A DNA stretch of 40,584 nucleotides from Ruminococcus sp. GTDB taxonomy: Bacteria > Bacillota > Clostridia > Oscillospirales > Ruminococcaceae. Of the stretch, positions 1 through 38,007 are shown one piece after another. The notes beneath the pieces were generated by a model, which was not told where the DNA came from, did no database searches, and was given only the letters and a program-made list of their open reading frames with translations. Made by a program: the position numbers and the translations under genes. Numbering within the stretch: position 1 is the stretch's first letter; every line of letters begins with the position of its first letter. The stretch is taken from contig JAFTQW010000005.1 in assembly GCA_017462565.1 (NCBI GenBank), positions 1 to 40,584 of the forward strand, written 5' to 3'.

Positions 1-156
1 GGTATTTGAAATAATTAATACTGGGTTTCCAAAGGGTGATTCCCCACAGTGTGGGGAAATGTCACGAAGTGACAAAGGGGACGGGCGACCGTTGGGAGGA
101 ATAACCCTTTGGCAGGGGTACGGGGACAGAGTCCCCGCTTAAGTTGTTGGCATTGG
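1..156 (-). repeat. R1: dispersed stem-loop element (partial, cut by window edge)
   Basis: This is the inverted orientation of the dispersed element family. It begins inside the variable hairpin (ggtatttgaaataatt) and continues with the TTTCCAAAGGG stem, the CCCCACAGTGTGGGG stem, the TGTCACGAAGTGACA stem, CCCTTTGG, and the CGGGGAC/GTCCCCG stem. It ends in cttaagttgttggcattg, the class-A terminal repeat also seen in R5, R9 and R11. The left end lies outside the window. I see no coding frame. Confidence 0.8.
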
Positions 157-234
157 TTGCCTAAAATATCCTCAATTGCTTTAAGCGAAAGATGTACAAA
201 CATCTCTGCATACATTTTAAAGAGGTGATAACGC

Positions 235-480
235 ATGATTGAGGGAACGATTAAAGAGACAGAGACCGACAGTGAAAAGATATACGAGTACACAACAATA
301 TGCAAGTCCGGAACTCGTGCCAATGTAAAGATTATCAGACCAGTTTTAGATGATGAAGAATATGTTCGCCGTCGAAGAGAAGCGGAGCAGGAGCTGATCC
401 GGTTTGCGCAGGGCGTTATCGCCGACGGGCATGACTGGAAAGAACTTGTGCGATTGAGAGAGACCAAGCCCCTTATTTAA
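235..480 (+). CDS. hypothetical protein, 81 aa
   Basis: I do not recognise the family. The start ATG is preceded by a good ribosome binding site (agaggtgat), which is the main reason to believe the gene. The product is 81 residues, hydrophilic and charged. It has a Glu/Arg-rich helix at about residues 38-60 (EEYVRRRREAEQELIRFAQG) and no signal peptide or membrane segment. Its stop overlaps the stop of the convergent SOD gene by a few bases. It follows directly after repeat R1. Small proteins of this composition occur in phage and plasmid contexts, but nothing here proves that origin. Confidence 0.55.
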   Translation: MIEGTIKETETDSEKIYEYTTICKSGTRANVKIIRPVLDDEEYVRRRREAEQELIRFAQGVIADGHDWKELVRLRETKPLI

Positions 481-931
481 TAATACCACAGGCGATTTTC
501 TCGCCTGAATTTCCTGAGGGCTGCGTGTGGTAATCGTCCGGAGCAGCGTGTATAATAACAGGATATCCTTTCACCTGCGTCGGCTGAAAACGATTTGTAT
601 AAAAGGCGGTCCATGCATATCCGTTATTGCTGAATAATGCAGGAAGATCGCCGGTATGAAAAGGGTGTTCCTCATTGAAAAGGTTCAGGTGAGAGCCTGC
701 ATTTGCAAAGGGATCATCTGTATTTCCGCTGCATTCCGTCCCATTATGAATGTGCATGGCGAATACTCTTTTATCCGAGGGAAGATTGAAAATTTCAGCG
801 ACTGCCAATGAGCCGTTACAGGCTTTAAAAAATGAAACTGTTCCGTGTATCTCCGGATATTTCGGCGAACCGGAAATGACTGCAATACGGCAGGGACGCT
901 GTAAAAGAAGTTTTGGATTTACTGTGAACAT
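473..931 (-). CDS. Cu/Zn-type superoxide dismutase family protein
   Basis: The 152-residue protein matches the Cu/Zn SOD fold. Copper-type ligands are visible as H60 and H62 (the HIH pair), H81 (GSHLN) and H128 (VIIHAAPDD). Zinc-type ligands are H81, H89, H92 and D95 (EEHPFHTGDLP). C67 and C148 (ACG) are placed for the family disulfide. The conserved active-site Arg just before the second Cys is Lys here (K145, in GEKIACG), which should change superoxide steering but need not abolish activity. There is no signal peptide, so it is probably cytoplasmic, unlike most bacterial SodC enzymes. The start has GGAGGT at 937-942. It is a single gene, convergent with the 81-aa gene. Confidence 0.82.
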   Translation of the reverse strand: MFTVNPKLLLQRPCRIAVISGSPKYPEIHGTVSFFKACNGSLAVAEIFNLPSDKRVFAMHIHNGTECSGNTDDPFANAGSHLNLFNEEHPFHTGDLPALFSNNGYAWTAFYTNRFQPTQVKGYPVIIHAAPDDYHTQPSGNSGEKIACGIIK

Positions 932-1099
932 ATATTGACCTCCATACTACTATTTAGAAACTGTATTCATAAGATGTGCACATTATCTTGTGAAGACAGG
1001 TTCTTATACTATTACATATATGTGTAACGTAAAAAGCGTGTTACTGTTTTTTAAAGGAACAGATAAATTTTTTCGCAGGGCGGCGTTTGCATTAAGTTT

Positions 1100-1148
1100 T
1101 GGAAAATAACAAAAAACAACCGTCGGAGCTTGATTTGCTTCGACTGTT
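1100..1148 (-). terminator. hairpin with U-rich tail on the minus strand (possible terminator)
   Basis: An imperfect stem (cgtcggagc / gcttcgactg) is followed, read on the minus strand, by ttgttttttgtt. It has terminator form, but no minus-strand gene is visible upstream of it (1150-1300 has no supported frame), so it may be a leftover of a lost gene. Confidence 0.3.
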
Positions 1149-1304
1149 TCGTGTATATACAACAAAAAACAACTATATTCTTTGTAATTATAAACAAACT
1201 TTCGGTAAATGTATTGTAATTTGGATAAATATGTGTTATTATTGTAACTAAGAGGTATCTTAATAATCAAATATGCAGTCGAATTGTGGAGTTTTACAAT
1301 GAAA

Positions 1305-1407
1305 TTTAAGGAAGCACTGATTAAATCCAGTGTGCAAGATGACGGAAAATATGCAAGCAAAGTGCGTGCCGAGCCGTCAGGCGTGATTTAATCAGTGATT
1401 CCTTAAA
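1305..1407. repeat. 103-bp miniature inverted-repeat element
   Basis: The ends form a near-perfect inverted repeat: left arm 1305-1327 (tttaaggaagcactgattaa...) and right arm 1385-1407, matching at 22 of 23 positions. The interior contains a second stem (gacgg ... ccgtc) and no coding frame. It has MITE architecture and lies directly before the Spo0A-like remnant. Its arms do not match those of R1-R16. Confidence 0.75.
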
Positions 1408-1411
1408 ATAA

Positions 1412-1860: not shown

Positions 1861-2490
1861 ATGAAAAAATTCAGGAAAATTTTATCCGCAGTTTCTGCCG
1901 CTGTGCTTTGCGCTCTGCCTTTGATTAACTGTGCGGCTGTTAATGCAGCTTCAGAATCTGAAAAAATTAATACTTACAGAGTATACGTTGATGTAAAAGA
2001 AAATTCAGGCGTATGCAAATGTATAGTGTCATCATTATATGATGGCGATAATATGCGTTTTCAAGAAACGAAAATAGGGGATCTTGGCGGTGAAGTAAGC
2101 AACACATCAGTTGGAAATCAGTATGTTGAGTGTTATTATACAGCTTCCGGCAATCTGGCTCAGGCCGGAACCCTTTTTACCATGAAATATATTTCTAAAA
2201 ATACCTATGAGGAAAATGAAAAGGATTTTAAAATTTATTCTGAAAATTCTAATGGAGTAAAATTAAGTTCTGATTTAATCAGCCGGACAGCAGTTTTAGT
2301 TGGCGATGCTGATGGAGACGGTCGTGTATTTTTGAATGATGTTGTTTGTATAGAACAATTCATTGGTAATCCAGAGAATTATCCTCTTACAAATGTCAGA
2401 GCGGCTGATGTAAATAACGACGGCGTTATTACAGATGAAGACGCATTGCTTATTCAAAAATATAATATAAATTTAATTAAACATTTTTAA
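1861..2490 (+). CDS. secreted dockerin protein, tandem paralogue 1
   Basis: 209 residues. A Sec signal peptide covers about 1-30 (MKKFRKILSA..., cleavage near NAA-SE). A mature domain of about 115 residues (31-145) is predicted to be beta-rich and ends in a GTLFTMKY segment that resembles cohesin or carbohydrate-binding beta-sandwiches. A type I dockerin covers 148-209, with two calcium loops (GDADGDGRVFLND at 148-160; ADVNNDGVITDED at 182-194) followed by helices. The dockerin should dock the protein onto a cohesin on a scaffoldin or the cell surface. The RBS is gaaagga. It is first of four tandem homologues with near-identical signal peptides. The function of the middle domain is unknown. 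Confidence 0.8.
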   Translation: MKKFRKILSAVSAAVLCALPLINCAAVNAASESEKINTYRVYVDVKENSGVCKCIVSSLYDGDNMRFQETKIGDLGGEVSNTSVGNQYVECYYTASGNLAQAGTLFTMKYISKNTYEENEKDFKIYSENSNGVKLSSDLISRTAVLVGDADGDGRVFLNDVVCIEQFIGNPENYPLTNVRAADVNNDGVITDEDALLIQKYNINLIKHF

Positions 2491-2511
2491 AATTAGAAAG
2501 GACGTATTATT

Positions 2512-3162
2512 ATGAAAAAATTCAAGAAAATTTTATCCGCAGTTTCTGCCGCTGTGCTTTGCGCTATGCCTATGATCAATGGCGCTGCCGCTAATGCGGC
2601 TTCTGATGAAGAAAGCTATAAAAAAACCTTTGTAGTATATCATATCGTTGATAATCCCCAGATTGCATATTTTGACTTTACAATCGGTTATAATTCCTGC
2701 TTAACGGCAGAACCAAGTATGAAAACTGCTCTTTGCGGTACTAATAGCTTTAATTCGATTCATTACAATATAAGCCGTCAAATTAAGACAACTTACAGCG
2801 GAAGCGCTTTTGGTACAACGGGTACGGCGGCTACTACTAAATTCCTTGGAGATTTATCTGTATCAATCGATGATATTTATGACCTCATATCATGTGATAA
2901 TGTAGCTATAAAAAATGCAAACGGAAAAAGTATGTCAAAAACAGCGTTAGACAATCGAATATATCTTTTGGGCGACGTAAATGGTGATGATTGTGTTGAG
3001 ATTGCCGACGCTACACTTATTTTACAACATCTTATAAATCCAACTGGTTATCCTCTCCGAGATAATGGAATAGCAGCCGATGTTAATCTTGATGGTGTTA
3101 TAAATGAAGATGATGCGTTGTTGATTCAGCAATATGACGCCGGTGTGATCAAGCATTTCTGA
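2512..3162 (+). CDS. secreted dockerin protein, tandem paralogue 2
   Basis: 216 residues, 21 bp downstream of paralogue 1. The signal peptide (MKKFKKILSAVSAAVLCAMP..., to about residue 30) is almost identical to that of its neighbours. The mature domain (about 31-150) is divergent and Ser/Thr/Gly-rich. The C-terminal dockerin has two calcium loops (GDVNGDDCVEIAD and ADVNLDGVINEDD) and ends in the shared VIKHF-type tail. It is presumably co-transcribed with the other three. No catalytic motif is seen. The middle region could be a binding or structural module exported to the cellulosome or cell wall. RBS gaaagga is 10 bases before the ATG. Confidence 0.8.
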   Translation: MKKFKKILSAVSAAVLCAMPMINGAAANAASDEESYKKTFVVYHIVDNPQIAYFDFTIGYNSCLTAEPSMKTALCGTNSFNSIHYNISRQIKTTYSGSAFGTTGTAATTKFLGDLSVSIDDIYDLISCDNVAIKNANGKSMSKTALDNRIYLLGDVNGDDCVEIADATLILQHLINPTGYPLRDNGIAADVNLDGVINEDDALLIQQYDAGVIKHF

Positions 3163-3197
3163 GATTAGTTTTTGCTGAATTTGAAAGGATGATTACT

Positions 3198-3824
3198 GTG
3201 AAAAAATTTAAAAAGATCTTATCCGCAGTTTCTGCCGCTGTACTTTGCGCGATGCCATTAGCGAATGGTATGGCCGCTAATGCTGCCGGAATCACAAAGA
3301 CGTATAGAGTTTATTTTGATGTTCCGGCTAACTCCGGCGTTGCTTCAGCGAATTACAGCATGACATATTCTAAACATATGAGCGAAGCATTTTATGATGT
3401 TGGAAATCTCGGCGGAAGCGTTAGCAGCGGAGGCAATGGTCAAGGAGTTAATAATATATGCGGTTGTTATTATACAGCCAATGAAGCGCTTGTAAACCCG
3501 GGAACTCTTTTCACAATGAAATTTTATGGCGATATGAGCTTTGAAGAAGCTGTGATTAAATATGAACTTACTGCCAAATATTCAAATGGAGCAGAAATGT
3601 CCTCTAATCCTATTACTATGGATGTAGTATTGGTTGGAGACGCTGACGGGGATGGCAGTATAACTATTGATGATGCAGTGAGCATTATAATATATGCTGC
3701 TAATCCGTCAGGCTATCCGTTAAGCAATCTTCGTGCAGCAGACGCTAACGGAGACGGCGTTGTTACGGAAGAAGATGCAACAATGGTACAGCAGTATCTT
3801 GCTCAAATTATTAATCATTTCTGA
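3198..3824 (+). CDS. secreted dockerin protein, tandem paralogue 3 (GTG start)
   Basis: 208 residues from the GTG at 3198. An in-frame ATG at 3189 overlaps the ribosome binding site, and aligning the four paralogues places the start at the GTG, where the sequence becomes (V/M)KKFKKILSAVSA. The signal peptide runs to about residue 30. The mature domain (to about 145) is close to paralogue 1, sharing the YRVYFDVPANSGV, GDLGG/GNLGG, CYYTA and PGTLFTMKF segments. The dockerin has loops GDADGDGSITIDD and ADANGDGVVTEED. It probably belongs to the same transcript as its neighbours (35 bp gap). Function beyond dockerin-mediated attachment is unknown. Confidence 0.8.
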   Translation: MKKFKKILSAVSAAVLCAMPLANGMAANAAGITKTYRVYFDVPANSGVASANYSMTYSKHMSEAFYDVGNLGGSVSSGGNGQGVNNICGCYYTANEALVNPGTLFTMKFYGDMSFEEAVIKYELTAKYSNGAEMSSNPITMDVVLVGDADGDGSITIDDAVSIIIYAANPSGYPLSNLRAADANGDGVVTEEDATMVQQYLAQIINHF

Positions 3825-3838
3825 AAGAAGGTTTTATT

Positions 3839-4489
3839 ATGAAAAAATTCAAGAAAATTTTATCCGCAGTTTCTGCCGGAGTTCTTTGCGCCCTGCCAAT
3901 GATGAATGGAGCTGCCGCTAATGCTGTCAGACCCGGACAATATGATACTTATATGGTATTCTGTGATGTTGAGGCGAATTCAGGAGTTCAGTATTGCAGT
4001 ATGATAGTGGTTCATAATGGAGAAGATGGGGCTCAGGCTATGCACGGCAATCTTGGTAACGGTGATATGCAAACTTATATAACAAATAGGGTTGACGGAA
4101 AAGTATCTTATGCAACAATGTATGATGCTAACGGCGCTCTGGCAGCGAAAGGAACGGTATTTAAGGTTAAAGTGGTAACTGAACCAAAAGAGCCTGAGGA
4201 AGAAATACCATTTGAAGTAGATGAACCATCTGCTTTTGATGTGAACTATACTTTTTTGGGTAAAGGTGTTGCAACCACGGAGATAGTAATGTTAGGCGAT
4301 GTAAATGGCGATAAATGCGTTAATATATTAGATGCAGTTTTAATCCAACAGCATCTTGCAAATTCAACAAATTATCCGTTGAATAAGAAAGCTTTTCGTG
4401 CCGCTGATGTAAATTACGACGGCGTTGTTAATAATGAAGACGCTCTTCTGATTCAAAAATATGAAGCAGGCTCTATAAGTAATTTTTAA
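3839..4489 (+). CDS. secreted dockerin protein, tandem paralogue 4
   Basis: 216 residues, 14 bp after paralogue 3. The signal peptide again begins MKKFKKILSAVSAGVLCALP. The mature domain includes a YMVFCDVEANSGV segment related to paralogues 1 and 3, then an acidic, proline-rich linker (EPKEPEEEIPFEVDEP, about residues 117-132). The dockerin has two calcium loops (GDVNGDKCVNILD and ADVNYDGVVNNED). It is the last gene of the tandem set. The following 100 bp hold a weak CAGCC/GGCTG stem but no clear terminator. Confidence 0.8.
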   Translation: MKKFKKILSAVSAGVLCALPMMNGAAANAVRPGQYDTYMVFCDVEANSGVQYCSMIVVHNGEDGAQAMHGNLGNGDMQTYITNRVDGKVSYATMYDANGALAAKGTVFKVKVVTEPKEPEEEIPFEVDEPSAFDVNYTFLGKGVATTEIVMLGDVNGDKCVNILDAVLIQQHLANSTNYPLNKKAFRAADVNYDGVVNNEDALLIQKYEAGSISNF

Positions 4490-5023: not shown

Positions 5024-5039
5024 GTTTTAAGGCATAAGA

Positions 5040-7910: not shown

Positions 7911-8152
7911 TGATGTCAGCTTAAGGGGACTCTGTCCCCTTAAACCCCTGCCAAAGGGGTATCCGCCTAACCGGCGCCCGTCCTCTCTGTCGGCAAGCCG
8001 ACATCTCCCCACACTGTGGGGAGTCACCCTTTGGAAACCCAGTATTAATTATTTCAAATACCGTTGGTATTTGAAATAATTATGGCTATCGCCAAAGATT
8101 GAATACTTTTTGACAAAAGTTCAAGGTGCAAAATCTCTTAAGTTGAAGTTAT
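7911..8152 (+). repeat. R2: dispersed stem-loop element (long form)
   Basis: The order of parts is: AAGGGGAC/GTCCCCTT stem, CTGCCAAAGGGG arm, an inserted module with TGTCGGCAAGCCGACA and CCCCACACTGTGGGG stems, CCCTTTGG arm, variable hairpin (ttatttcaaatacc / ggtatttgaaataa) and small hairpin TGGCTATCGCCA. The ends (gatgtcagcttaag ... cttaagttga) are a degraded class-A terminal repeat. It lies 3' to R3 in inverted orientation. No coding capacity. Confidence 0.85.
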
Positions 8153-8201
8153 ACTGTTTGCTTATACAAACAATATTTAAGTTTACTGCGGTTAACAAAC
8201 G

Positions 8202-8280: not shown

Positions 8281-8524
8281 GTGGGACTTGTTTCTCTTTG
8301 CTTTCTGTCAAAAGCGTAGCTTCCCCATGGACTGCGTCCAATTATTACAAATGCCCATGTGGGTATTTGTAATAATTTAATTGTGGGTTTCCAAAGGGTG
8401 ACTCCCCACAGTGTGGGGAGATGTCGGCTTGCCGACAGAGGGGACGGGCGCCGGTTAGGCGGATACCCCTTTGGCAGAGGGTTTAAGGGAGACAGCGTCT
8501 CCCTTAATAAAGGAGATGATTCCC
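8281..8524 (-). repeat. R3: dispersed stem-loop element (long form), abutting rnhA start
   Basis: In inverted orientation the element holds: small hairpin TGGACTGCGTCCA, variable hairpin (ttattacaaatgccc / gggtatttgtaataa), the CCAAAGGG stem with the TGTCGGCTTGCCGACA and CCCCACAGTGTGGGG module, CCCTTTGG, and the AAGGGAGAC/GTCTCCCTT stem. The outer ends are only loosely complementary (gtgggacttgtttctctttg against ...aaaggagatgattccc). If they are real, the rnhA ribosome binding site and first three codons are element sequence. Confidence 0.75.
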
Positions 8525-10204: not shown

Positions 10205-10621
10205 ATGATGTACAGTGAAAAGGTTCTCGACCATTTTTCAAATCCGAGAAATGTAGGCGAGATCGAAAATGCAGACGGCGTCGGCGAGATCGGCAACGCT
10301 AAGTGCGGCGATATTATGAAGATGTACCTGAAAATCGACAACGGTATCATCACAGACGCTAAGTTTAAAACATTCGGCTGCGGTGCGGCAATCGCTACGT
10401 CTTCCATGGCTACGGAGCTTATCAAAGGAAAGTCTATCGACGACGCCCTCAAGCTCACAAACGATGCTGTTGTAGAGGCTCTTGACGGACTTCCGGCAGT
10501 GAAGATACATTGTTCAGTTCTCGCAGAACAGGCTGTAAGATCGGCTCTTTCCGACTATTATACAAAGCAGGGTATCGATCCGCTCCCGATCGTGGGCGAA
10601 ATCAAAGAACCCGAAGAATAA
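10205..10621 (+). CDS. nifU: NifU/IscU-type Fe-S cluster scaffold protein
   Basis: 138 residues, matching the N-terminal scaffold domain alone. Three cluster cysteines are C34 (NAKCGD, with D36), C59 (FGCGAAIA) and C103 (IHCSVLAEQA). The N-terminal MYSEKVLDHFSNPRNVG is diagnostic. A second ATG codon follows the first, so either may be used; RBS is aaaggag. It is 30 bp after nifS, its functional partner that loads sulfur onto these cysteines. The short acidic tail (EIKEPEE) is ordinary. R4 follows closely. Confidence 0.95.
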   Translation: MMYSEKVLDHFSNPRNVGEIENADGVGEIGNAKCGDIMKMYLKIDNGIITDAKFKTFGCGAAIATSSMATELIKGKSIDDALKLTNDAVVEALDGLPAVKIHCSVLAEQAVRSALSDYYTKQGIDPLPIVGEIKEPEE

Positions 10622-10633
10622 GCCGCCTTTTAC

Positions 10634-10900
10634 ACTTAATGGCTTTTTTAAGGGGAGACGCTGTCTCCCCTTTGAACCCCTCTGCCAAAGGGTTATTCCT
10701 CCCAACGGTCGCCCGTCCCCTTTGTCACTTCGTGACATTTCCCCACACTGTGGGGAATCACCCTTTGGAAACCCGGTATTAATAAAAATAAAACCCCATA
10801 AAGGGGTTTTTATTTTTATTAGGGCGAATGCCCAAAAAGGACAGATGCTCTTTGACAGAAAGCAATGGGAAAACAATGACTCCTTAAAAAGCCATAAGTA
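10634..10900 (+). repeat. R4: dispersed stem-loop element (long form, unique terminal repeat)
   Basis: The order is: left end acttaatggcttttttaagg; AGGGGAGAC/GTCTCCCCT stem; CCAAAGGG with the TGTCACTTCGTGACA and CCCCACACTGTGGGG module; CCCTTTGG; a long variable hairpin (taataaaaataaaacccc / ggggtttttatttttatta); small hairpin GGGCGAATGCCC; right end ctccttaaaaagccataagt, complementary to the left end. It lies downstream of nifU and probably also terminates its transcript. Confidence 0.85.
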
Positions 10901-10915
10901 TGAAAAGCATTATTC

Positions 10916-11101
10916 TTGAATTTATATATGTGGTTTTGTGTCCACAATATCTTGTTTAAGGGACTGTTGCTCTATTGGGCGCAGCCCTAATTAATAATGC
11001 CCCATTATGGGGCATTATTAATTAATACCGGGATTCTCAAGGGGTGATCACCCCTTGAGCAGGGGGATTGGGGGACGGCGTCCCCCATATATAAGTTTCA
11101 G
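10916..11101 (-). repeat. R16: dispersed stem-loop element (short form)
   Basis: The ends ttgaatttatatatg and catatataagtttca are complementary. Inside, in inverted orientation, are GGGCGCAGCCC, the variable hairpin (aattaataatgcccc / ggggcattattaatt), a TCAAGGGGTGATCACCCCTTGA stem and a GGGGGAC/GTCCCCC stem. It is directly downstream of the LRR gene that ends at 11114. Confidence 0.75.
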
Positions 11102-15112: not shown

Positions 15113-15303
15113 CAATGTCAACAACTTAAGCGGGGGACGCTGTCCCCCGTACCCCCAGCCAAAGGGTTATTCAACCCTTTGGAAACCCAGTATTAATTAT
15201 TTCAAATACCATTGGTATTTGAAATAATTATGGCTGTCGCCAAAGATTGAATACTTTTTTGCAGGAGTTCAAGGTACAAAATCTCTTAAGTTGTTAGCAT
15301 TGT
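15113..15303 (+). repeat. R5: dispersed stem-loop element (short form, class-A ends)
   Basis: This is the cleanest class-A copy. Left end caatgtcaacaacttaag; GGGGGAC/GTCCCCC stem; CCAAAGGGTTATTCAACCC then TTTGG; variable hairpin (attatttcaaatacca / tggtatttgaaataat); small hairpin TGGCTGTCGCCA; right end cttaagttgttagcattg, complementary to the left end. R6 follows immediately. Confidence 0.88.
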
Positions 15304-15440
15304 TGCCCCGACCCCATCAGGGACGCTGTCCCTGAACCCTGCCAAAGGGGAGTACCCGCCTAACAGGCGCCCGTCCCCTCTGTCGGCAAGCCGACATCTC
15401 CCCACACTGTGGGGAGTCACCCTTTGGAATCCCATTATTA
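15304..15440 (+). repeat. R6: dispersed stem-loop element, partial (long-form core)
   Basis: Directly after R5 the core parts recur: CAGGGAC/GTCCCTG stem, CTGCCAAAGGGG, the GCCTAACAGGC, TGTCGGCAAGCCGACA and CCCCACACTGTGGGG stems, then CCCTTTGGAATCCC. No variable hairpin or right end follows, so it is a truncated copy. It stands in tandem with R5 upstream of the spoVAD repeats. Confidence 0.8.
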
Positions 15441-15444
15441 TAAA

Positions 15445-15517
15445 TAACCCACGAGCGGATGTGTTCTGAAACCTTTTTTCGGAAGTAACTTCGTGACTGG
15501 GTGCAGCGTCACGCTGC
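15445..15517 (+). repeat. 73-nt direct repeat, copy 1, upstream of spoVAD
   Basis: The unit begins taacccacgagcggatgtgt and ends in a GCAGCG-TCA-CGCTGC hairpin. Copy 2 at 15553-15624 differs only by one deleted g and one C/T change. It has no coding frame shared with spoVAD. Confidence 0.9.
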
Positions 15518-15552
15518 TATAATGGTATTTATAAAAAATCTTTTGAAAATAG

Positions 15553-17055: not shown

Positions 17056-17263
17056 GCAGCAGTATTTGTTATGTTTATCAAGAGGACTTTGATCTTTTAA
17101 TTCCCTGCTGAATGGAGTTATTTTCCTCTGAGCATCTTTCTAAATTATAAAAAATACCCCTTTACGGGGTATTTTTTATAATTTAATTGTGGGTTTCCAA
17201 AGGGATAATATCCCTTTGGCAGGGGTTTAAGGGGACAGCGTCCCCTTTAGAAAATACTGCTCA
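17056..17263 (-). repeat. R7: dispersed stem-loop element, overlapping the 3' end of the Ca2+ ATPase gene
   Basis: The left end gcagcagtatttgttatg is complementary to the right end agaaaatactgctc (core AGCAGTATTT). Inside, in inverted orientation, are the variable hairpin (ttataaaaaatacccc / ggggtattttttataa), TTTCCAAAGGGATAATATCCC with CTTTGG, and the AGGGGAC/GTCCCCT stem. The variable hairpin with its T run also looks like an intrinsic terminator for spoVAD-spoVAE. The right end lies inside the ATPase reading frame. Confidence 0.75.
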
Positions 17264-23369: not shown

Positions 23370-23670
23370 GACAGGCAACAACATTTACTTTTTTGTTATG
23401 TTTATCAAGTGAACCAGTGCTAACAACTTAGCAGGGGACTCTGTCCCCCGTACCCCCTGCCAAAGGGGAGTACATCCCCTTTGGAATCCCGATATTAATT
23501 ATTTTCATTACCTCGTAAAGAGGTAATGAAAATAATTAGGGCAGAATGCCCATAGAATAGACGTCCCTTTGAAAAGGGTTCGAGGAACAGAATTTCCTAA
23601 GTTGTTGGCATTGTCAAGGGGACAGAGTCCCCTTTATAACTAACAGGAAAAGTAAATGCCGTCGTCTCAG
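23370..23670 (+). repeat. R8: composite dispersed element (class-A copy nested in a class-B shell)
   Basis: The outer ends caggcaacaacatttactttt and aaaagtaaatgccgtcgtct are complementary (class B, as in R14). Inside, 23417-23613 has class-A ends (gctaacaacttag / ctaagttgttggcattg) around GGGGACTCTGTCCCC, CCAAAGGGGAGTACATCCCC plus TTTGG, a variable hairpin (attattttcattacctc / gaggtaatgaaaataat) and GGGCAGAATGCCC. A further AAGGGGACAGAGTCCCCTT stem lies between the inner and outer right ends. The right end meets the mazF stop codon. Confidence 0.82.
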
Positions 23671-25730: not shown

Positions 25731-25885
25731 CAATGTCAACTACTTAAGCTGGGAACTCTGTCCCCCGCACCCTTTGCCAAAGGGTTATTCAAACCTTTGG
25801 AAACCCAGTATTATGGCTATCGCCAATGATAGGATATCCTTTTACAGAAGTTCAAAGTAAAAAATCTCTTAAGTTGTTGGCATTG
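25731..25885 (+). repeat. R9: dispersed stem-loop element lacking the variable hairpin
   Basis: Class-A ends (caatgtcaactacttaag / cttaagttgttggcattg) enclose a degraded GGGAAC/GTCCCC stem, CCAAAGGGTTATTCAAACC then TTTGG, and TGGCTATCGCCA. The variable hairpin that normally stands between CCCAGTATTA and TGGC is absent with a clean junction. It lies between hydF and the terminator of the dehydrogenase gene. Confidence 0.85.
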
Positions 25886-28529: not shown

Positions 28530-28793
28530 GTTGTTAAGATAAATCAGAATTTACTTTAGCTTTCTGCACAGCCTATTGAGGGAAACCCTTTTGAAAAAGG
28601 GGTCCTCTAACCGAGGCGTGTCCCCTCTGTCCCTTCGGGACATCTCCCCACACTGTGGGGAGTCACCCTCAAACTCCCTTCCTAAAACTAAAAGTCTTTG
28701 GAAAGGGGTCTGGGGAAGAACCTTTCCTCAGAAAGGTTTTCCCCAGTATGGTTACACAGAAAACTGTAATAAATTCCGATTTATCTTAATAAC
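28530..28793 (+). repeat. R10: 264-bp terminal-inverted-repeat element between argG and argH
   Basis: The ends are a 24-bp inverted repeat with 22 matches (gttgttaagataaatcagaa... at 28530-28553, complement at 28770-28793). This end class occurs nowhere else in the window. The interior holds the shared module (TGTCCCTTCGGGACA and CCCCACACTGTGGGG stems) followed by GGGGAAGAACCTTTCC / GGAAAGG...CCCC-type stems in place of the usual core. No open frame fits. Confidence 0.85.
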
Positions 28794-30205: not shown

Positions 30206-30206
30206 T

Positions 30207-30473: not shown

Positions 30474-30486
30474 CCTGCCTGCATGA

Positions 30487-30675
30487 GCAATGTTGTCAAT
30501 TCAAGGGGACGCTGTCCCCTTAAACCCCTGCCAAAGGGTTATTCAACCCTTTGGAAACCCGGTATTAATTATTTCAAATACCAAGGGTATTTGAAATAAT
30601 TATGGCTGTCGCCAAAGATCGAATACTATTTGGCAAAAATTCAAGGTGCAGAGTCTCTTAAGTTGACAGCATTGC
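30487..30675 (+). repeat. R11: dispersed stem-loop element (short form, class-A ends)
   Basis: Ends gcaatgttgtcaatt and aagttgacagcattgc are complementary. Inside: AAGGGGAC/GTCCCCTT, CCAAAGGGTTATTCAACCC then TTTGG, variable hairpin (attatttcaaatacc / ggtatttgaaataat), TGGCTGTCGCCA. It is very close to R5. With R12 it fills the whole 466-bp gap between the small membrane-protein gene and argC. Confidence 0.88.
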
Positions 30676-30701
30676 CTGCAAGTGATTGTTATTATTCTAT
30701 C

Positions 30702-30924
30702 AAAATAATATTTGCCTTTTGTCCGGATTATAAGGGAATACTGTTTCTCTATTCGCTGTAAAAGAGAGTATTTACTCTTAGGATATCATCCTAAATATTT
30801 CAAATACCCCTTGTGGGTATTTGAAATATTTAATTGTGGGTTTCCAAAGGGTGGATTCACCCTTTGGCAGGGGGTTAAGGGGACAGCGTCCCCTTATAAA
30901 TCCAGATGAAAGTAAATTTTCTCC
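30702..30924 (-). repeat. R12: dispersed stem-loop element (short form)
   Basis: Inverted orientation relative to R11. The small hairpin is TAGGATATCATCCTA, the variable hairpin aatatttcaaatacccc / gggtatttgaaatatt, then CCAAAGGGTGGATTCACCC with TTTGG and AAGGGGAC/GTCCCCTT. Ends (aatatttgccttttgtccgg and ccagatgaaagtaaatttt) are roughly complementary, class-B-like. The right end is 15 bp before the argC start. Confidence 0.78.
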
Positions 30925-30939
30925 CGAAAGGATAAAAAT

Positions 30940-31887
30940 ATGTCAGTTAAAGTATATATAGACGGTCAGGAAGGTACTACCGGACTTAAAATCCTTGAGC
31001 GTTTCAAGGATAGAAACGATATTGAGCTGCTCCGTATCAGCGAGGATAAGCGTAAGGATTCCGCTGAGAGGGCAAGACTTATAAATATGTCGGATTACAC
31101 TTTTCTCTGTCTTCCGGATGACGCTGCAAGAGAAGCGGTTTCGTTCGTGGACAACGATAAAGTCAGGATAATCGACGCTTCTACGGCTCACAGAACCAAC
31201 CCCGACTGGGCTTACGGTTTTCCGGAGCTTTCTCCTCAGCACAGAGAAAAAATCAGAACTTCTAACAGAGTTGCCGTTCCCGGCTGCTATGCGAGCGGAT
31301 TCGCTTCAATCGTTTATCCGCTGGTGAAAAATAACGTCATTCCCGATGATTTTCCCGTTTTTGCCTATGCGACTTCCGGTTACAGCGGCGCAGGAAAAAA
31401 AGCTATTGCCGTTTATGAGGGAAGCGATAAGCCGGAAGAATTCAACAGTCCCAGACAGTACGCTCTCTCGCAGCAGCATAAGCATCTTCCGGAGATGAAA
31501 GCCGTTTCCGGACTGAAATTCACTCCGATGTTCAATCCTATGGTCTGCGATTATTTCAGCGGAATGGTCGTAAGCGTTCCGATTCAGACGAGAATGCTCG
31601 GTTCTTCCGTTACGGCTGAGTCGGTTCACGATATGTACGCAAAGCACTATGACGGAGCAAAAATGGTCGAGGTTATGCCGCTTATGCCCGCAGACGAGCA
31701 GAAGAGCTTTTTCCTTGCTTCAAATACGCTCAGCGGACAGAATAAAATGCAGGTTTTCGTTTTCGGAAACGACGAACAGATTCTCCTTTGCTCACGTCTT
31801 GATAATCTCGGAAAAGGCGCAAGCGGAGCGGCTGTTCAGTGCCTTAATATTATGATGGGAATAGACGAGACTACGGGTCTTGTATGA
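30940..31887 (+). CDS. argC: N-acetyl-gamma-glutamyl-phosphate reductase (type 2)
   Basis: 315 residues, the short AGPR type 2. It reduces N-acetylglutamyl phosphate to the semialdehyde with NADPH. Visible are the nucleotide-binding IDGQEGTTGLKI (8-19), IDASTAHR, YGFPEL, and the catalytic cysteine in VAVPGCYASGF. RBS gaaagga. It is followed 10 bp later by argJ, so argC-argJ are co-transcribed. Confidence 0.96.
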   Translation: MSVKVYIDGQEGTTGLKILERFKDRNDIELLRISEDKRKDSAERARLINMSDYTFLCLPDDAAREAVSFVDNDKVRIIDASTAHRTNPDWAYGFPELSPQHREKIRTSNRVAVPGCYASGFASIVYPLVKNNVIPDDFPVFAYATSGYSGAGKKAIAVYEGSDKPEEFNSPRQYALSQQHKHLPEMKAVSGLKFTPMFNPMVCDYFSGMVVSVPIQTRMLGSSVTAESVHDMYAKHYDGAKMVEVMPLMPADEQKSFFLASNTLSGQNKMQVFVFGNDEQILLCSRLDNLGKGASGAAVQCLNIMMGIDETTGLV

Positions 31888-31897
31888 GGATAAAATT

Positions 31898-33193: not shown

Positions 33194-33198
33194 GCAAC

Positions 33199-33341
33199 GG
33201 TATTTTCAGGGGGACGCTGTCCCCCTGAAACCCCCTGCCAAAGGGATATCATCCCTTTGGAAACCCGGTATTAATTATTTCTTATACCCGTAAAGGGCAT
33301 AAGAAATAATTAGGGCAGAATGCCCGAAAAGAATAATACCA
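33199..33341 (+). repeat. R13: dispersed stem-loop element (short form, short ends)
   Basis: Ends ggtattttc and gaataatacc are short complements. Inside: CAGGGGGAC/GTCCCCCTG, CCAAAGGGATATCATCCC with TTTGG, variable hairpin (attatttcttataccc / gggcataagaaataat), GGGCAGAATGCCC. It separates argJ from argB. Confidence 0.82.
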
Positions 33342-33442
33342 TAAGCAGGAAGTTAAAGAAAACAAAATCCCCGGCAATGCCTATGAACGATAAACGCTTT
33401 TGCCGGAGTATTGCGGTATATATTTTGAAGGGAAAAATAAAA

Positions 33443-34309
33443 ATGGAAAAAATTTCAAACAGCGGCAAATCGCAGGTTCTTATCGACGCTTTGCCGTATA
33501 TTCAGAAATATAACAATAAAATCCTTGTCATCAAGTACGGCGGCAACGCTATGACCAACAAAGAACTCAAAGACGCTGTTATGACGGATATCGTTCTGCT
33601 TTCGCTCGTTGGAGTTAAGGTCGTTCTCGTTCACGGAGGCGGTCCGGAAATCAACGATATGCTCGGCAGACTCGGTATCGAGAGCAGATTTATAAACGGT
33701 CTGCGCTATACGGACGAGGAAACTGTAAATGTTGTGAAAATGGTTCTCGCAGGAAAGGTGAACAAGGAGCTTGTTCAGCTTCTCGCTCAGCATAAGGGAA
33801 GCGCAGTCGGTCTTTGCGGTATCGACGGCGAGATGCTTACGGCGGAGAAAAAGATGACCGACGACGGTCAGGATCTCGGCTATGTAGGCGAAATAACAAA
33901 GGTCAACACCAAGCCTATTCTCGACGCTCTTGCAAACGGAAATATCCCCGTTATCGCAACCGTTGCCACAGATGCAGAGGGCAACACATATAATGTAAAC
34001 GCAGATACTGCCGCTGCAAGGATAGCCGCCGAGCTTGGGGCTGAAAATCTCATACTTATGACCGATATCGCCGGTCTGCTTCGTGATAAGGACGATCCGA
34101 AAACTCTCATTCCCGAAGTGAACGTAAGCGAAGTTCCGTTTTTGAAAAGACAGGGAATCATCTCCGGCGGAATGATTCCTAAAATCGACTGCTGCGTTGA
34201 AGCCGTAAGAAGAGGCGTGAACAAAACCGTTATCATCGACGGCAGGGTACCTCATTCTATCCTTATCGAAATTCTTTCAAACGAAGGCATAGGTACTCAG
34301 TTTGTATGA
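33443..34309 (+). CDS. argB: acetylglutamate kinase
   Basis: 288 residues from ATG 33443 (RBS gaaggga); longer frames run back into R13. It phosphorylates N-acetylglutamate. Motifs are VIKYGGNAM (Lys for phosphate), LVHGGGPEIN, FINGLRYTDEE and the ADTAAARIAAELGAENLILMTDIAG and GGMIPKI regions. An N-terminal helix (GKSQVLIDALPYIQKYNNK) precedes the core, as in arginine-sensitive hexameric forms; feedback inhibition by arginine is therefore plausible but inferred. Confidence 0.96.
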   Translation: MEKISNSGKSQVLIDALPYIQKYNNKILVIKYGGNAMTNKELKDAVMTDIVLLSLVGVKVVLVHGGGPEINDMLGRLGIESRFINGLRYTDEETVNVVKMVLAGKVNKELVQLLAQHKGSAVGLCGIDGEMLTAEKKMTDDGQDLGYVGEITKVNTKPILDALANGNIPVIATVATDAEGNTYNVNADTAAARIAAELGAENLILMTDIAGLLRDKDDPKTLIPEVNVSEVPFLKRQGIISGGMIPKIDCCVEAVRRGVNKTVIIDGRVPHSILIEILSNEGIGTQFV

Positions 34310-34379
34310 GAATAAATTCCTTATAAGAATATAATTTTACTTATAAACTGAAAATTTACGAAATAAAACTCTCTGGTTA

Positions 34380-34409
34380 TTGATTTTATATAGCATTCAG
34401 CGTTATAAT
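34380..34409 (+). promoter_or_regulatory. candidate argD promoter
   Basis: TTGATT (34380-34385), an 18-bp spacer and TATAAT (34404-34409), about 50 bp before the argD start. An ARG-box half-site (TGAATATC, 34431-34438) lies just downstream. Confidence 0.55.
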
Positions 34410-34460
34410 TATTATATATAATGGAAATCATGAATATCTTGTCCCTGAGGAGGAAAAATT

Positions 34461-35639
34461 ATGGGAAGCAATGAAAAAACAATCGAAAAATTCAACAGCC
34501 ATGTGGCGCAGTCCTACGGGCGTTATCCTCTCGCTATGAAAAAGGGACAGGGCAGACGATGCGTTGACGAAAGCGGTAAGGAATATATTGATCTCGGAAG
34601 CGGAATAGGCGTTAATTCTCTCGGCTTCTGCGATGAAAAATGGGCGGACGCCGTTTGCAGTCAGGTAAGATCGCTTCAGCATAACTCAAATTATTATTAT
34701 ACCGAGGTTCAGGCTGAATTTGCGGAAAAGCTCTGTAATGCAACAGGCTATGCTTCCGTATTTTTCGGAAACAGCGGTGCGGAAGCCAATGAATGCGCTA
34801 TCAAAGCCGCAAGAAAATACAGTTTCGATAAATACGGCAGGGGCAGACATAATATCATTACTCTTGTCAATTCCTTCCACGGCAGAACCATGGCTACTCT
34901 TTCGGCTACAGGTCAGGATGTTTTTCATAATTACTTCTTCCCGTTCCTTGAGGGATTCATTAATGTCAGGGCTAACGATATTGACGATCTCAAAGCTAAA
35001 CTGGATGATACGGTTTGCGCAGTTATGATGGAATACGTTCAGGGCGAGGGCGGAGTGAACGCTCTGGAACAGGAGTTTGTTGACGCTGTTTACAGCCTTT
35101 GCGCTGAAAAGGACGTCCTTGTTATTGCCGATGAGATTCAGACCGGCGTTGGAAGAACGGCAACTCTTCTTGCCGGAGATGTTTTCGGCAAAAAAGCCGA
35201 TATTACGACTCTTGCAAAAGGTATAGCAGGCGGTATTCCTATGGGCGCCTGTCTGTTTTCGGAAAAGTGCAGCGGAGTTCTTACCCCCGGAACACACGGC
35301 TCAACATTCGGCGGAAATCCTATTGCCTGCGCCGGAGGTCTTGCGGTTCTTGAAAGAGTGACAGAAGACGGTTTCCTCGAGGAAGTTGGCAAAAAAGCTG
35401 ATTACATAAGGTCTAAGCTTGAAAAATGCGGCGAGGTTGAAGCTGTAAGCGGTATCGGTCTTATGATTGGCATTTCTCTTAAAACCAAAAAAGCCGCCGA
35501 TGCGGCAAGAGAAGCTTTTGAAAGGGGAGTGCTTGTTCTTACCGCAAAGGAAAAAATAAGACTTCTTCCGCCTCTTAACATATCTTATGAAGAGATCGAC
35601 AGCGGGCTGGATATACTTATCAATATACTGGAGGAATGA
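34461..35639 (+). CDS. argD: acetylornithine aminotransferase
   Basis: 392 residues, class III PLP aminotransferase. It makes N-acetylornithine from the semialdehyde with glutamate. Visible are FGNSGAEANECAIKAAR (phosphate binding), NSFHGRTMATLSATG, D224 in VIADEIQTGVGRT, and PLP lysine K253 in TLAKGIAGG, followed by GSTFGGNPIACAG. RBS gaggagg. It may have its own promoter. A 156-aa gene starts at its stop. Confidence 0.96.
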   Translation: MGSNEKTIEKFNSHVAQSYGRYPLAMKKGQGRRCVDESGKEYIDLGSGIGVNSLGFCDEKWADAVCSQVRSLQHNSNYYYTEVQAEFAEKLCNATGYASVFFGNSGAEANECAIKAARKYSFDKYGRGRHNIITLVNSFHGRTMATLSATGQDVFHNYFFPFLEGFINVRANDIDDLKAKLDDTVCAVMMEYVQGEGGVNALEQEFVDAVYSLCAEKDVLVIADEIQTGVGRTATLLAGDVFGKKADITTLAKGIAGGIPMGACLFSEKCSGVLTPGTHGSTFGGNPIACAGGLAVLERVTEDGFLEEVGKKADYIRSKLEKCGEVEAVSGIGLMIGISLKTKKAADAAREAFERGVLVLTAKEKIRLLPPLNISYEEIDSGLDILINILEE

Positions 35640-35641
35640 GC

Positions 35642-36106
35642 ATGGAGTTATTAGTAGCATCAAAAGGCAGCAAATATATTGTTGAGGACAAAAAGTCCAG
35701 ACTTTTGTATACGGTCAAGAAAAAAGGATTCAGCCCACGCTATATTCTTCTGGATGCAAGCAACTATAACCTTTATACGCTGCTTCAGACAGGCGACGAC
35801 AGAAAACCGGCTTTTACGGTTATTCTTAATGACGATGAATTTCTTAAAATGGAGTGTAAATCGCTCTTCCTCGATCCGACTATCACTGCCGAGGGAAAGG
35901 ATATGAAATTCGTTATCGCAAGCAAGGACAGAAAAAATTTCGATATTATTCTCAATGATATAACGGTCGGTCATATTAAAACAAAAACAGCTGTGTCAGG
36001 AGGTCTGCAATATGATCTCGATATCGAAAACACTGCGTTTGACGACTATATACCGCTTTTTGCCGTTGCGATCGACAGAGCTTTCGGCGAAATGAATAAA
36101 AGCTGA
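35642..36106 (+). CDS. hypothetical protein in the arginine cluster, possible tubby/LURP-one-like fold
   Basis: 154 residues from ATG 35642, which is 8 bases after GGAGG; an ATG at 35636 overlaps the argD stop but is too close to the RBS. There is no signal peptide or membrane helix. The alternating hydrophobic pattern (YIVEDKKSRLLYTVKKKG, YILLDASNYNLYTLLQTG, FDIILNDITVGHIKTK) suggests a beta-barrel. The VxDxxxxxLYxVKxK pattern recalls LURP-one/tubby-like proteins, but I am not sure of that. It sits between argD and argF in the same direction, so it is co-transcribed. Function is unknown. Confidence 0.75.
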   Translation: MELLVASKGSKYIVEDKKSRLLYTVKKKGFSPRYILLDASNYNLYTLLQTGDDRKPAFTVILNDDEFLKMECKSLFLDPTITAEGKDMKFVIASKDRKNFDIILNDITVGHIKTKTAVSGGLQYDLDIENTAFDDYIPLFAVAIDRAFGEMNKS

Positions 36107-36135
36107 TATATCAGATTCAGAAAGGACAAAATATA

Positions 36136-37038
36136 ATGAAACATTTACTTAAAATGCTCGATCTCACTTCTGAGGAAATCATTGATATCCTCAATCTTGC
36201 AGATCAGCTTAAATATGAACTCAAACACGGAATCCCGCATCCACACCTTAAAGGCAAAACCCTCGGAATGATTTTCCAGAAGGCTTCTACACGTACAAGA
36301 GTTTCCTTTGAAACAGGTATGTATCAGCTCGGCGGTTATCCTTTGTTCCTCTCTTCAAACGATCTTCAGATCGGAAGAGGCGAGCCTGTTCAGGATACGG
36401 CAAGAGTTCTTTCACGCTACCTTGACGGAATTATGATCCGTACATTTGAGCAGAAAGAGGTTGAGGATCTTGCCGAATACGGAAGCATTCCGATAATCAA
36501 CGGTCTTACCGACTTCTGTCATCCGTGTCAGGTTCTTGCCGACCTTATGACTATCCGTGAATTCAAGGGCAGTTTCGACGGACTGAAAATGTGTTTTATC
36601 GGCGATGGAAACAATATGGCAAATTCTCTTATTGTCGGCTGCCTTAAAGTAGGTATGGCAGTATCTGTCGCTTGTCCGGACGATTATCAGCCGCCTAAGG
36701 AGATTCTTGATTTTGCTGCTGCTTATGATAATTTCGAGCTGACAAATTCTCCCGTTCAGGCTGCTAAGGATGCGGACGTACTTATTACCGACGTCTGGGC
36801 TTCTATGGGTCAGGAGGGTGAAGCTGAGAAGAGAAAGAAGGCTTTCGCCGGATATCAGATCAACGATGAGCTTATGGCCGTTGCTAAGCCGGACGCTATG
36901 GTTCTTCACTGCCTCCCTGCACACCGTGAAGAGGAAATTACAGAGAAGGTTTTCGAGGCTCACGCCAAGGAGATCTTTGAAGAGGCTGAAAACCGTCTCC
37001 ACGCTCAGAAGGCCGTTATGGTCAAGCTTATGGCGTAA
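36136..37038 (+). CDS. argF: ornithine carbamoyltransferase
   Basis: 300 residues. It makes citrulline from ornithine and carbamoyl phosphate. Carbamoyl-phosphate motif STRTR at 51-55, HPCQ at 129-132, ornithine-binding SMG (DVWASMGQE) and HCLP at 258-261 are all intact. RBS gaaagga. It is last gene of the arginine cluster. A 12-bp palindrome (CTGATATATCAG, 36103-36114) precedes it. R14 follows. Confidence 0.97.
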   Translation: MKHLLKMLDLTSEEIIDILNLADQLKYELKHGIPHPHLKGKTLGMIFQKASTRTRVSFETGMYQLGGYPLFLSSNDLQIGRGEPVQDTARVLSRYLDGIMIRTFEQKEVEDLAEYGSIPIINGLTDFCHPCQVLADLMTIREFKGSFDGLKMCFIGDGNNMANSLIVGCLKVGMAVSVACPDDYQPPKEILDFAAAYDNFELTNSPVQAAKDADVLITDVWASMGQEGEAEKRKKAFAGYQINDELMAVAKPDAMVLHCLPAHREEEITEKVFEAHAKEIFEEAENRLHAQKAVMVKLMA

Positions 37039-37061
37039 AATAAAATGGCAGGAGTACTTGC

Positions 37062-37299
37062 CAGGATAACAACATTTACTTTTTATTGTGTTTATCAAGC
37101 AGACTTTGTTTCCCTGATTCCTTGTAAAAAGAGGTTATTTACATCAGGGCCTCCTGCCCTAATCCTTGAGGATACCCTATATGGGGTATCTTCAAGGATT
37201 AATATCGGGATTCCAAAGGGACTGTACGTCCCTTTGGCAGGGGTAAGGGGACAGAGTCCCCTTAATAATTAACACGAAAAGTAAACGCTGTTGTCCTGA
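37062..37299 (-). repeat. R14: dispersed stem-loop element (short form, class-B ends)
   Basis: Ends caggataacaacatttac and gtaaacgctgttgtcctg are complementary. In inverted orientation: GGGCCTCCTGCCC, variable hairpin (aatccttgaggatacccc against ggggtatcttcaaggatt, one mismatch), CCAAAGGGACTGTACGTCCC with TTTGG, and AAGGGGAC/GTCCCCTT. The ends match those of R8. Confidence 0.86.
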
Positions 37300-37334
37300 C
37301 AGGAAATCCTGCCCTTTCTGTTTGAGGTGATAAA

Positions 37335-37754
37335 ATGGCAAATCTCATTTGGGGTATAATCGGGCTTGGGATAGCTCTGATTGCCGCTGTTTTCCTTGTA
37401 AGGCTTGTGATTCTGAATAAGCGTGGAATCGTGGTTCTGGCGGAGGTTATTGCTGTGAAAGAAAAACAGCACACCGTCAGAAGTTCAAAAACAAGATTTA
37501 AAACTGAGAGGAAAACGGATTCATATATTCATACTATGCGTTATAAAATCGGTGAGGATTTAATGGAGGCTGACGATAGGGCTGAATATATTCAGCCGTT
37601 TGAAATCGGCTCTACTCATCTGATAATATGCGACCCGAAAAATCCGGAGAAATTTGAGTACGAAAGCGATATTAAACGCAATATTATGCTGTTTGCCGTT
37701 ATGGCAGCGGTTGCGGTTTTATTCTCGCTTAAATGGATTTTTGTCAATAAATAA
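37335..37754 (+). CDS. DUF3592-like membrane protein
   Basis: 139 residues. One N-terminal membrane helix (about 4-26), a soluble middle part with beta-strand pattern (VVLAEVIAVKEKQ ... HTMRYKIGEDLMEAD ... LIICDPKNPEKFEYE), and a second helix near 113-134. The order helix, A(R/E)V-strand, (M)RY(K)I strand, DPKNP, helix is that of DUF3592-type proteins. Function is unknown. RBS gaggtgat. It is a single gene with its own terminator at 37761-37791. Confidence 0.7.
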   Translation: MANLIWGIIGLGIALIAAVFLVRLVILNKRGIVVLAEVIAVKEKQHTVRSSKTRFKTERKTDSYIHTMRYKIGEDLMEADDRAEYIQPFEIGSTHLIICDPKNPEKFEYESDIKRNIMLFAVMAAVAVLFSLKWIFVNK

Positions 37755-37760
37755 TAAATG

Positions 37761-37791
37761 GATGCTGCATGAAAATGCGGCGTCTTTTTTT
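37761..37791 (+). terminator. intrinsic terminator
   Basis: GATGCTGCAT pairs with ATGCGGCGTC around a GAAA loop, followed by seven T. Confidence 0.9.
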
Positions 37792-37799
37792 ATGTCATA

Positions 37800-38007
37800 C
37801 TAATCCCCGAAATGTTGATAGATAAAATTGCGAGCAGAAATTTCATCAGGCAAGGAGAGCACCGCAAGACAGGCTGCTCGAACGAGCCGTCCCCTCTGTC
37901 ACTTCGTGACATCTCCCCACACCGTGGGGAGTCACCTGTCGAGGATGCTCGACGCAGCATGGTAGAATTTATGCCGCAAGTTTATCTATTGTTATTTTGG
38001 GGATTAG
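37800..38007 (+). repeat. R15: 208-bp element with 44-bp terminal inverted repeats and TA flanks
   Basis: Ends ctaatccccgaaatgttgat and its imperfect complement (attgttattttggggattag) continue for about 44 bp. TA stands immediately outside both ends (37798-37799, 38008-38009), as with TA-target MITEs of the IS630/mariner type. The interior has the shared module GTCCCCTCTGTCACTTCG/TGACA and CCCCACACCGTGGGG, but not the CCAAAGGG or variable-hairpin parts. Confidence 0.85.

What the first reader, a model, noticed from the sequence alone, without database searches (positions are those of the whole stretch)
1..38007. A dense family of structured intergenic elements (R1-R16)
About sixteen non-coding copies of 140-300 bp lie in 38 kb, always between genes or at gene ends. 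They share an ordered chain of stem-loops: outer inverted repeat, GGGGAC/GTCCCC stem, CCAAAGGG/CCCTTTGG stem, long variable hairpin, small variable hairpin. No transposase is present. The density exceeds what ordinary MITEs or REP elements usually show, and the fold, more than the sequence, is what copies share. It could be a mobile RNA or ssDNA substrate, or a widespread post-transcriptional element.
Basis: seen in the sequence. Interest (0 to 1): 0.8.

Follow-up and report, generated by a model that had tools for sequence, protein, structure and literature searches.

The report
Hairpin-chain MITEs of an ISAs1 element
The repeats look like small passenger transposons that a cut-and-paste jumping gene of the same gut bacterium moves around, and each carries a chain of near-perfect DNA hairpins whose two arms change together, which looks like RNA conservation but probably is not.

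Summary
The repeats are real: 14 structured copies in the window, plus 2 sites holding only an inserted sub-module. Exact core anchors number 147 in the 2.63-Mb genome, whose closest named relatives are Ruminococcus flavefaciens-like. They are mobile. A relative (about 92% identical) has empty or altered sites, and elements defined by their termini are flanked by 10-bp duplications (0 of 2000 shuffles in three of four sets). Of 124 copies examined, 29 keep recognisable terminal repeats at both ends. One type, CAnGGCAACAGCATTTACTTTTT, is the terminus of a complete ISAs1-family IS in a congener, and of a multicopy ISAs1 IS in this genome, inside which 17 contig ends stop. So "no transposase" holds only for the window. 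These are MITEs. The hairpins covary strongly (122 two-sided changes against 25 in shuffles), but G-U pairs are almost absent, strand relative to genes is random, loops occur inverted on identical arms, and orthologous copies can differ by a whole matched hairpin. I read this as palindromes rewritten at DNA level (template switching or hairpin replacement), not RNA selection. The chain also sits in other shells, and hairpin H2 with its foot recurs patchily across the order. No Rfam match.

The parts
1..155 (-). element cut by the window start, one B-type terminus CTTAAGTTGTTGGCATTG at 138-155; carries an inserted N module
7918..8157 (+). element with H1 (7925-7939), H2 interrupted by an N module, H3, H4, tail (right end approximate); no A or B termini recognised
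8314..8509 (-). element with N module in the H2 loop; no A or B termini recognised
10614..10917 (+). element with N module and an outer inverted repeat AAGAATAAGCC.. (approximate ends)
10962..11092 (-). element with variant H2 stem CTCAAGGGG and its own H3
15113..15302 (+). B-type MITE with 18-bp terminal repeats; 10-bp flanks TTGCCCCAAT/TTGCCCCGAC match at 8 of 10
15312..15465 (+). core-only copy (H1, H2 with N module), no H3, followed by two D modules
17116..17252 (-). element between genes with H1, H2, H3; no A or B termini recognised
23371..23669 (.). remnant of an A-type element into which a B-type element is inserted
23415..23613 (+). B-type MITE inside the A-type remnant; flanks TCAAGTGAAC/TCAAGGGGAC match at 8 of 10
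25731..25885 (+). B-type MITE lacking H3; 10-bp flanks match at 7 of 10
30478..30487 (.). left target-site copy CCTGCATGAG (7 of 10 match the right one)
30488..30674 (+). B-like MITE with a diverged left terminus (below the threshold); the site is empty in the orthologous locus of the relative
30675..30684 (.). right target-site copy CCTGCAAGTG
30505..30519 (+). H1 hairpin GGGGACGCTGTCCCC of the 30488 copy
30766..30900 (-). chain of a second element upstream of argC; also present in the relative but with different H1-H4 sequences
33203..33338 (+). element between argJ and argB; present with the same H3 (one base different) in the relative
37062..37298 (-). A-type MITE, termini CAGGATAACAACATTTAC / GTAAACGCTGTTGTCCTG; no target duplication seen
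28609..28669 (+). N module alone (no hairpin chain)
37797..38010 (.). separate MITE-like repeat with termini ATACTAATCCCC carrying an N module

Best explanation
[quoted passage not shown] the B type (CAATGCCAACAACTTAAG) behaves the same and probably uses a relative of it. The transposase would bind the terminal repeat, cut the element out and paste it in, duplicating 10 bp (sometimes 9). Shown: identical termini in A-type MITEs and in ISAs1 insertion sequences, target duplications, empty sites, nesting. Inferred: the transposition chemistry, the enzyme for B, and that copies without recognisable ends are decayed or carry other ends. Between the termini lies a chain of four palindromes (H1-H4). 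Their paired changes arise at DNA level: one arm is rewritten from the other, or a whole hairpin is swapped (template switching or hairpin replacement), so palindromes stay near-perfect while sequences diverge. This second half is inferred from pattern.
For: (1) A congener (locus L203) holds a complete 1163-bp ISAs1-family IS (transposase 367.6 bits, cut-off 70) with perfect 23-bp termini CACGGCAACAGCATTTACTTTTT and a 9-bp duplication. (2) In the window's own genome 17 contig ends stop inside an IS with these termini; the encoded ends match that transposase, N-terminus 87-90% over 30-32 residues (6 ends), C-terminus 71-76% over 40-46 residues (11 ends). (3) 10-bp flank identity: A type, 20 own elements, 0.535 against 0.363 shuffled, 0 of 2000; A type, 19 entries from other loci (one is an own copy again; 12 lack the H2 core), 0.558 against 0.289, 0 of 2000; B type, 14 own entries (two share one end), 0.679 against 0.306, 0 of 2000. 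(4) Clean empty sites in the relative; 7 of 28 mapped single-element sites lack the core there. (5) B inserted in the H1 hairpin of A with a perfect duplication GTCCCCTTAA (L169). (6) 97.9% of 944 stem cells paired, 122 two-sided changes against 25.3 shuffled, only 6 G-U; H3 in two genomes: 2042 of 2076 pairs Watson-Crick, 7 G-T, 19 A-C, 8 other. (7) 5-nt loops inverted on the same arms in 3 arm types; over all H3, ATAAA 20/TTTAT 6, GTAAA 15/TTTAC 2. (8) Of 13 orthologous pairs, 7 have 0-1 change per arm; 6 differ clearly, with matched changes in both arms.
Against: Only 6 own A-type pairs have an exact end. The middle of this genome's IS is not in the contigs read, so an intact transposase is not shown here. 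The IS of L203 has a 9-bp duplication, most MITEs 10. For B no autonomous IS was found; the 5 B entries from other loci are weak (0.44 against 0.303, 92 of 2000). Of the 20 own A-type elements 4 reach 9-10 of 10 flank matches, 9 have 3 or fewer. In sites with changed H3 the tail is also less similar (72-88%), so conversion by another copy is not excluded, although the one arm tested has no second exact copy in the genome. The change counts depend on alignment: ungapped 4-14 per arm, gapped 2-7 substitutions plus gaps.
Confidence: 0.72

Rival explanations
1. A structured RNA element: the hairpin chain is transcribed and conserved by selection on the RNA fold (attenuator, processing or stability element).
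For: Very strong covariation; intergenic, also inside the arginine gene cluster.
Against: 6 G-U cells among 944, and in H3 A-C mismatches outnumber G-T, 19 to 7; strand relative to tandem genes random, 35 same and 30 opposite; no excess in convergent gaps (13 of 91 against background 25 of 156); no Rfam match at gathering score; orthologous copies are often absent or altered.
Confidence: 0.12
2. REP-like elements moved by a RAYT/Y1 transposase on single-stranded hairpins.
For: Hairpin H2 with a conserved foot GGAAWCC and largely genome-specific loops across the order. The close relative G020, which carries the same elements, has two Y1_Tnp matches, one of them with 3 internal stops.
Against: No Y1_Tnp (PF01797) match in 7 of 11 core-carrying genomes, this one included; 3 of 11 have a match over the cut-off. 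10-bp duplications and DDE-type termini.
Confidence: 0.06
3. The hairpin core is an independent mobile or selected unit, and the ISAs1 termini are only one of its vehicles.
For: H2 with its foot in 20 of 394 genomes of the order, reversed control 0; no A terminus seen in the 130-150 bases printed on each side of the copies read. The full chain occurs in G104 and G124, where no A terminus was found at up to 2 mismatches; in G124, 2 of 5 copies read have an end resembling the other ISAs1 IS, CACGnAAATCAATTTT.
Against: No mechanism of core movement found; core boundaries not tested for duplications; the hairpin upstream of H2 differs between genera (G391, G441), so only H2 and its foot are shared.
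Confidence: 0.35
4. H3 diversity is ordinary ectopic gene conversion between element copies.
For: Sites with changed H3 also have a more divergent tail; shared arms exist (19 of 81 carry TTATTTCAAATACC).
Against: 48 distinct 14-nt arm ends in 81 hairpins; the arm TGATTCACTCATATCCC has no exact match in the genome but its own two arms; inverted loops on the same arms.
Confidence: 0.3

Closest known systems
ISAs1-family insertion sequences (NCBIfam NF033564)
   Same: A-type termini, duplication of 9-10 bp, transposase family of the proposed partner
   Different: The elements carry no transposase, only a hairpin chain
MITEs in general (as described in PMC3049150, passages read)
   Same: Terminal repeats, target duplications, strong secondary structure, termini shared with an IS of the host
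   Different: Ordered multi-hairpin interior found in several inverted-repeat shells; paired hairpin replacement
Pneumococcal BOX elements (PMC3049150, passages)
   Same: Modular small intergenic repeats with predicted stem-loops and optional inner modules
   Different: No sequence kinship tested; here the interior includes hypervariable palindromes and an IS partner is proposed
Template-switch hairpins (PMC8794818; PMC8604942; passages)
   Same: Both-arm changes without intermediates; loop/spacer inversion
   Different: Reported there for RNA genes and yeast coding inverted repeats, not for a transposon family
IS1272 stem-loop-replacing transposition (PMC5678879, passages)
   Same: A hairpin is the target and is replaced; a possible analogue for N modules placed inside hairpins
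   Different: No IS1272-like enzyme was looked for here

Membership tests
MITE | terminal inverted repeats | tested here: met
   met for 29 of 124 anchor copies at the thresholds used; other copies not assigned
MITE | target-site duplication | tested here: met
   10 bp, 0 of 2000 shuffles in three sets; fourth set of 5 weak, 92 of 2000
MITE | no transposase gene, short | tested here: met
   144-427 bp in the A and B pairs listed, by size
MITE | insertion polymorphism | tested here: met
   empty sites; 7 of 28 single sites lack the core in the relative
ISAs1-mobilised element | termini identical to an ISAs1-family IS | tested here: met
   A type. For the B type no such IS was found
ISAs1-mobilised element | transposase acts on the termini | not testable with these tools
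   needs an assay
REP/RAYT element | Y1 (PF01797) transposase in the genome | tested here: not met
   0 in G000; no match in 7 of 11 genomes, but 2 matches in the close relative G020
Known structured RNA (Rfam 15) | match at gathering score | tested here: not met
   0 in the window; in 30200-33500 only a sub-threshold mir-3938 match, 21.6 bits against 94, E 0.48
Functional RNA by covariation | G-U intermediates and strand bias | tested here: not met
BOX element | boxA/boxB/boxC sequence homology | not tested
   compared by anatomy only, from passages

The most novel reading that the evidence does not exclude
The hairpin chain is a selfish or selected cargo in its own right that moves between transposon shells (A termini, B termini, in G124 termini like a second ISAs1 lineage), and it renews itself by replacing whole hairpins in one step, producing RNA-like covariation without any RNA function.
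Probability: 0.3. Interest if true: 0.75.

Novelty: new variant of a known kind. Interest (0 to 1): 0.5.

Why it matters
It links a dense repeat family of Ruminococcus, without a match in Rfam, to a concrete transposase, and accounts for the 17 contig ends read in this genome. It is also a warning and a test bed: paired substitutions in stems are usually taken as proof of a functional RNA, and here a mobile DNA family shows them strongly with almost no G-U pairs, with inverted loops and whole-hairpin changes. Many copies in related genomes would let template switching be measured directly.

Tried and rejected
L156, the first ISAs1 transposase found in the genome, was considered as partner and rejected: its close relatives have termini CACGGAAATCAATTTTC, not the A terminus. 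L155 (IS5-like fragment) rejected. REP/RAYT set aside because no Y1_Tnp was found in this genome, with the reservation given under the rivals. Terminator function: no enrichment in convergent gaps. In-place inversion: 5 of 28 single sites scored 'inverted', but on reading the alignments by eye two are better explained by nested insertion and one by an unrelated core copy; only two (L018 about 18071, L020 about 1316) share arms with an inverted interior, plus an inner flip of the double element at L011 about 8449. Inverted loops: one search lists 5 arm types; I count 3, leaving out one with 3-nt loops and one that is a double element read from both sides. The genus-wide covariance-model search (86 of 125 genomes) is not used as a copy count: only 26 candidates per genome were scored and weak matches may be generic hairpins. 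Of 99 testable clusters only 39 could be mapped on the relative, because only pieces of it, chosen for their elements, were fetched. Paper searches (ISAs1 with MITE; Ruminococcus with repeat terms; non-autonomous hairpin in Clostridiales) listed 6, 0, 1, 0 and 0 papers; I saw listings and abstract starts only, none describing these elements. The library lacks most subscription papers, so absence from print is not claimed. That ISAs1 ends often begin with CAGGG and duplicate 8-10 bp is recalled.
Full report
What is there. The window is the start of contig C8 of a 2.63-Mb genome. An argJ scan of named genomes returned 80 loci, most titled Ruminococcus or Ruminococcus flavefaciens, the closest (L031, 96% protein identity) an R. 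flavefaciens MAG; the window's own record is not named. Fourteen copies share, in order, H1 (GGGGACnCTGTCCCC), a C-run, H2 (CCAAAGGG..CCCTTTGG) followed by AAACCC or AATCCC, and in 12 of them a long A+T-rich hairpin H3, then a short hairpin H4 and a tail; the copy at the window start is cut before H3 is complete. Two further sites hold only an inserted N module.

Genome and wider distribution. Anchor CCCTTTGGAAWCCC: 147 in the genome, reversed control 0. The window is about five times denser than the mean. H2 plus its foot: 4 of 10 genomes reached through the argJ loci, control 0; 20 of 394 genomes and 16 of 168 genera of the order, control 0. Loops are largely uniform within a genome and differ between genomes in the matches listed. 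In the five other-genus genomes read (G382, G391, G441, G443, G498), another hairpin often lies upstream of H2, but its sequence differs and no A terminus was seen in the bases printed.

Mobility. Against the relative G020 (pieces chosen for their elements; syntenic segments mostly 85-96% identical), 39 of 99 testable clusters could be mapped; among 28 single-element sites 14 have the core in the same orientation, 5 inverted, 7 none, 2 several. Alignments show clean insertions, for example the element at 30488-30674 and an A element in L023. Flanks of elements defined only by their termini show 10-bp duplications, 0 of 2000 shuffles in three sets; the fourth set (5 B entries from other loci) is weak, 92 of 2000. 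Elements nest: B lies in the H1 of A with a perfect duplication in L169. On recount, 29 of 124 anchor copies have A or B termini at both ends, 4 of 12 in the window; the others may be decayed or have other ends, which was not resolved.

The transposase. The A terminus was searched in 125 genomes of the genus: 23 match at up to 2 mismatches, reversed control 0. One of them (G044) has a complete ISAs1-family IS with exactly this terminus. In the window's genome, termini with 0-1 mismatch lie about 140 bases from many contig ends; reading 17 such ends shows the two ends of an ISAs1-family gene, 11 from the C-terminal side and 6 from the N-terminal side, so the IS is present in many near-identical copies that broke the assembly. 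Its middle is not in the contigs read.

What the hairpins say. On 28 copies, 97.9% of stem cells pair, 122 cells changed on both sides against 25.3 in shuffles, none of 500 shuffles reaching it; sliding the partner by one column drops pairing to 57-58%. The 28 copies were chosen by me from those without N insertions and with H3, out of 106 anchors read. G-U cells number 6 of 944. Over all H3 hairpins parsed in two genomes (81 and 35), 7 pairs are G-T, 19 A-C, 8 other, 2042 of 2076 Watson-Crick. An RNA under selection tolerates G-U on its own strand and not A-C; the data lean, weakly, the other way. Strand relative to tandem neighbour genes is 35 to 30. Loops occur inverted on the same arms. 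Of 13 orthologous copies with more than 70% tail identity, 7 have H3 arms with 0-1 change; 6 have 4-14 changes per arm in an ungapped comparison, equal on both arms in 5, and 2-7 substitutions plus gaps when aligned with gaps. This all-or-nothing pattern is what arm-to-arm copying or replacement of a hairpin predicts; template switching is reported to do both arm homogenisation and spacer inversion (PMC8604942, PMC8794818; passages).

Cargo and shell. The chain is not tied to one terminus. B-type ends (CAATGCCAACAACTTAAG) enclose a fairly uniform group. In G124, 2 of 5 copies read have an end like CACGnAAATCAATTTTTACTT, resembling the termini of the other ISAs1 IS; in G104 and G124 the chain occurs although no A terminus was found at up to 2 mismatches. 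Conversely, A termini enclose other hairpins (G063, G042) or A+T-rich DNA without evident hairpins (L228) elsewhere, and 12 of 19 A pairs from other loci lack the H2 core. Coordinates suggest that G049 is the same genome as G020, so they are not independent.

Verdict. An ISAs1-driven MITE family with an unusual, modular hairpin interior. Mobility is well supported, the ISAs1 link for the A group well, for the rest by analogy; the DNA-level explanation of covariation is the best fit but not proven; a role for the chain in transposition is open.

Noticed in passing
window 8006-8022, 10740-10756, 15399-15415, 28645-28661, 37914-37930: N module (CTCCCAACGGTCGCCCGTCCCC..GTCACTTCGTGAC..TCCCCACACTGTGGGGA), inserted inside H2 or H1 hairpins without clear duplication; orthologs without it exist (L018 about 7410, L013 about 3088). 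Coordinates are of its last palindrome on the + strand; further copies lie inverted near 48 and 8405.
   Followed up: partly
window 15449-15624: Tandem D modules (CACGAGCGATGTGTT..GGGTGCAGCGTCACGCTGC); elsewhere they alternate with CCCTTTGGAAACCC-like pieces, e.g. L014 about 11477-11760.
   Followed up: no
window 37797-38010: A different MITE-like repeat with 12-bp termini ATACTAATCCCC carrying an N module; a related end occurs in L156 about 1170.
   Followed up: no
window 28553-28772: The relative has a different sequence of about 500 bp, apparently with an ORF, at this site instead of the N-bearing repeat.
   Followed up: no
window 1861-4489: Four tandem similar ORFs about 650-680 bp apart sharing a repeat that reads like a dockerin/EF-hand motif; the name is recalled, no family search was made.
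   Followed up: no
window 28817-37038: Arginine gene cluster (argH-, argC-, argJ-, argB- and argF-like genes) with elements between argH and argC and between argJ and argB.
   Followed up: partly
G000 contigs C8, C19, C28, C32; G020 C11:200-380 kb and 1.27-1.42 Mb: Elements appear to cluster in the same syntenic stretches in both species; the pieces compared were chosen for their elements, so this is untested.
   Followed up: no
L011:8449-9192: Double element H1-H2-H3-H2'-H1' whose inner part is flipped between the two species.
   Followed up: partly
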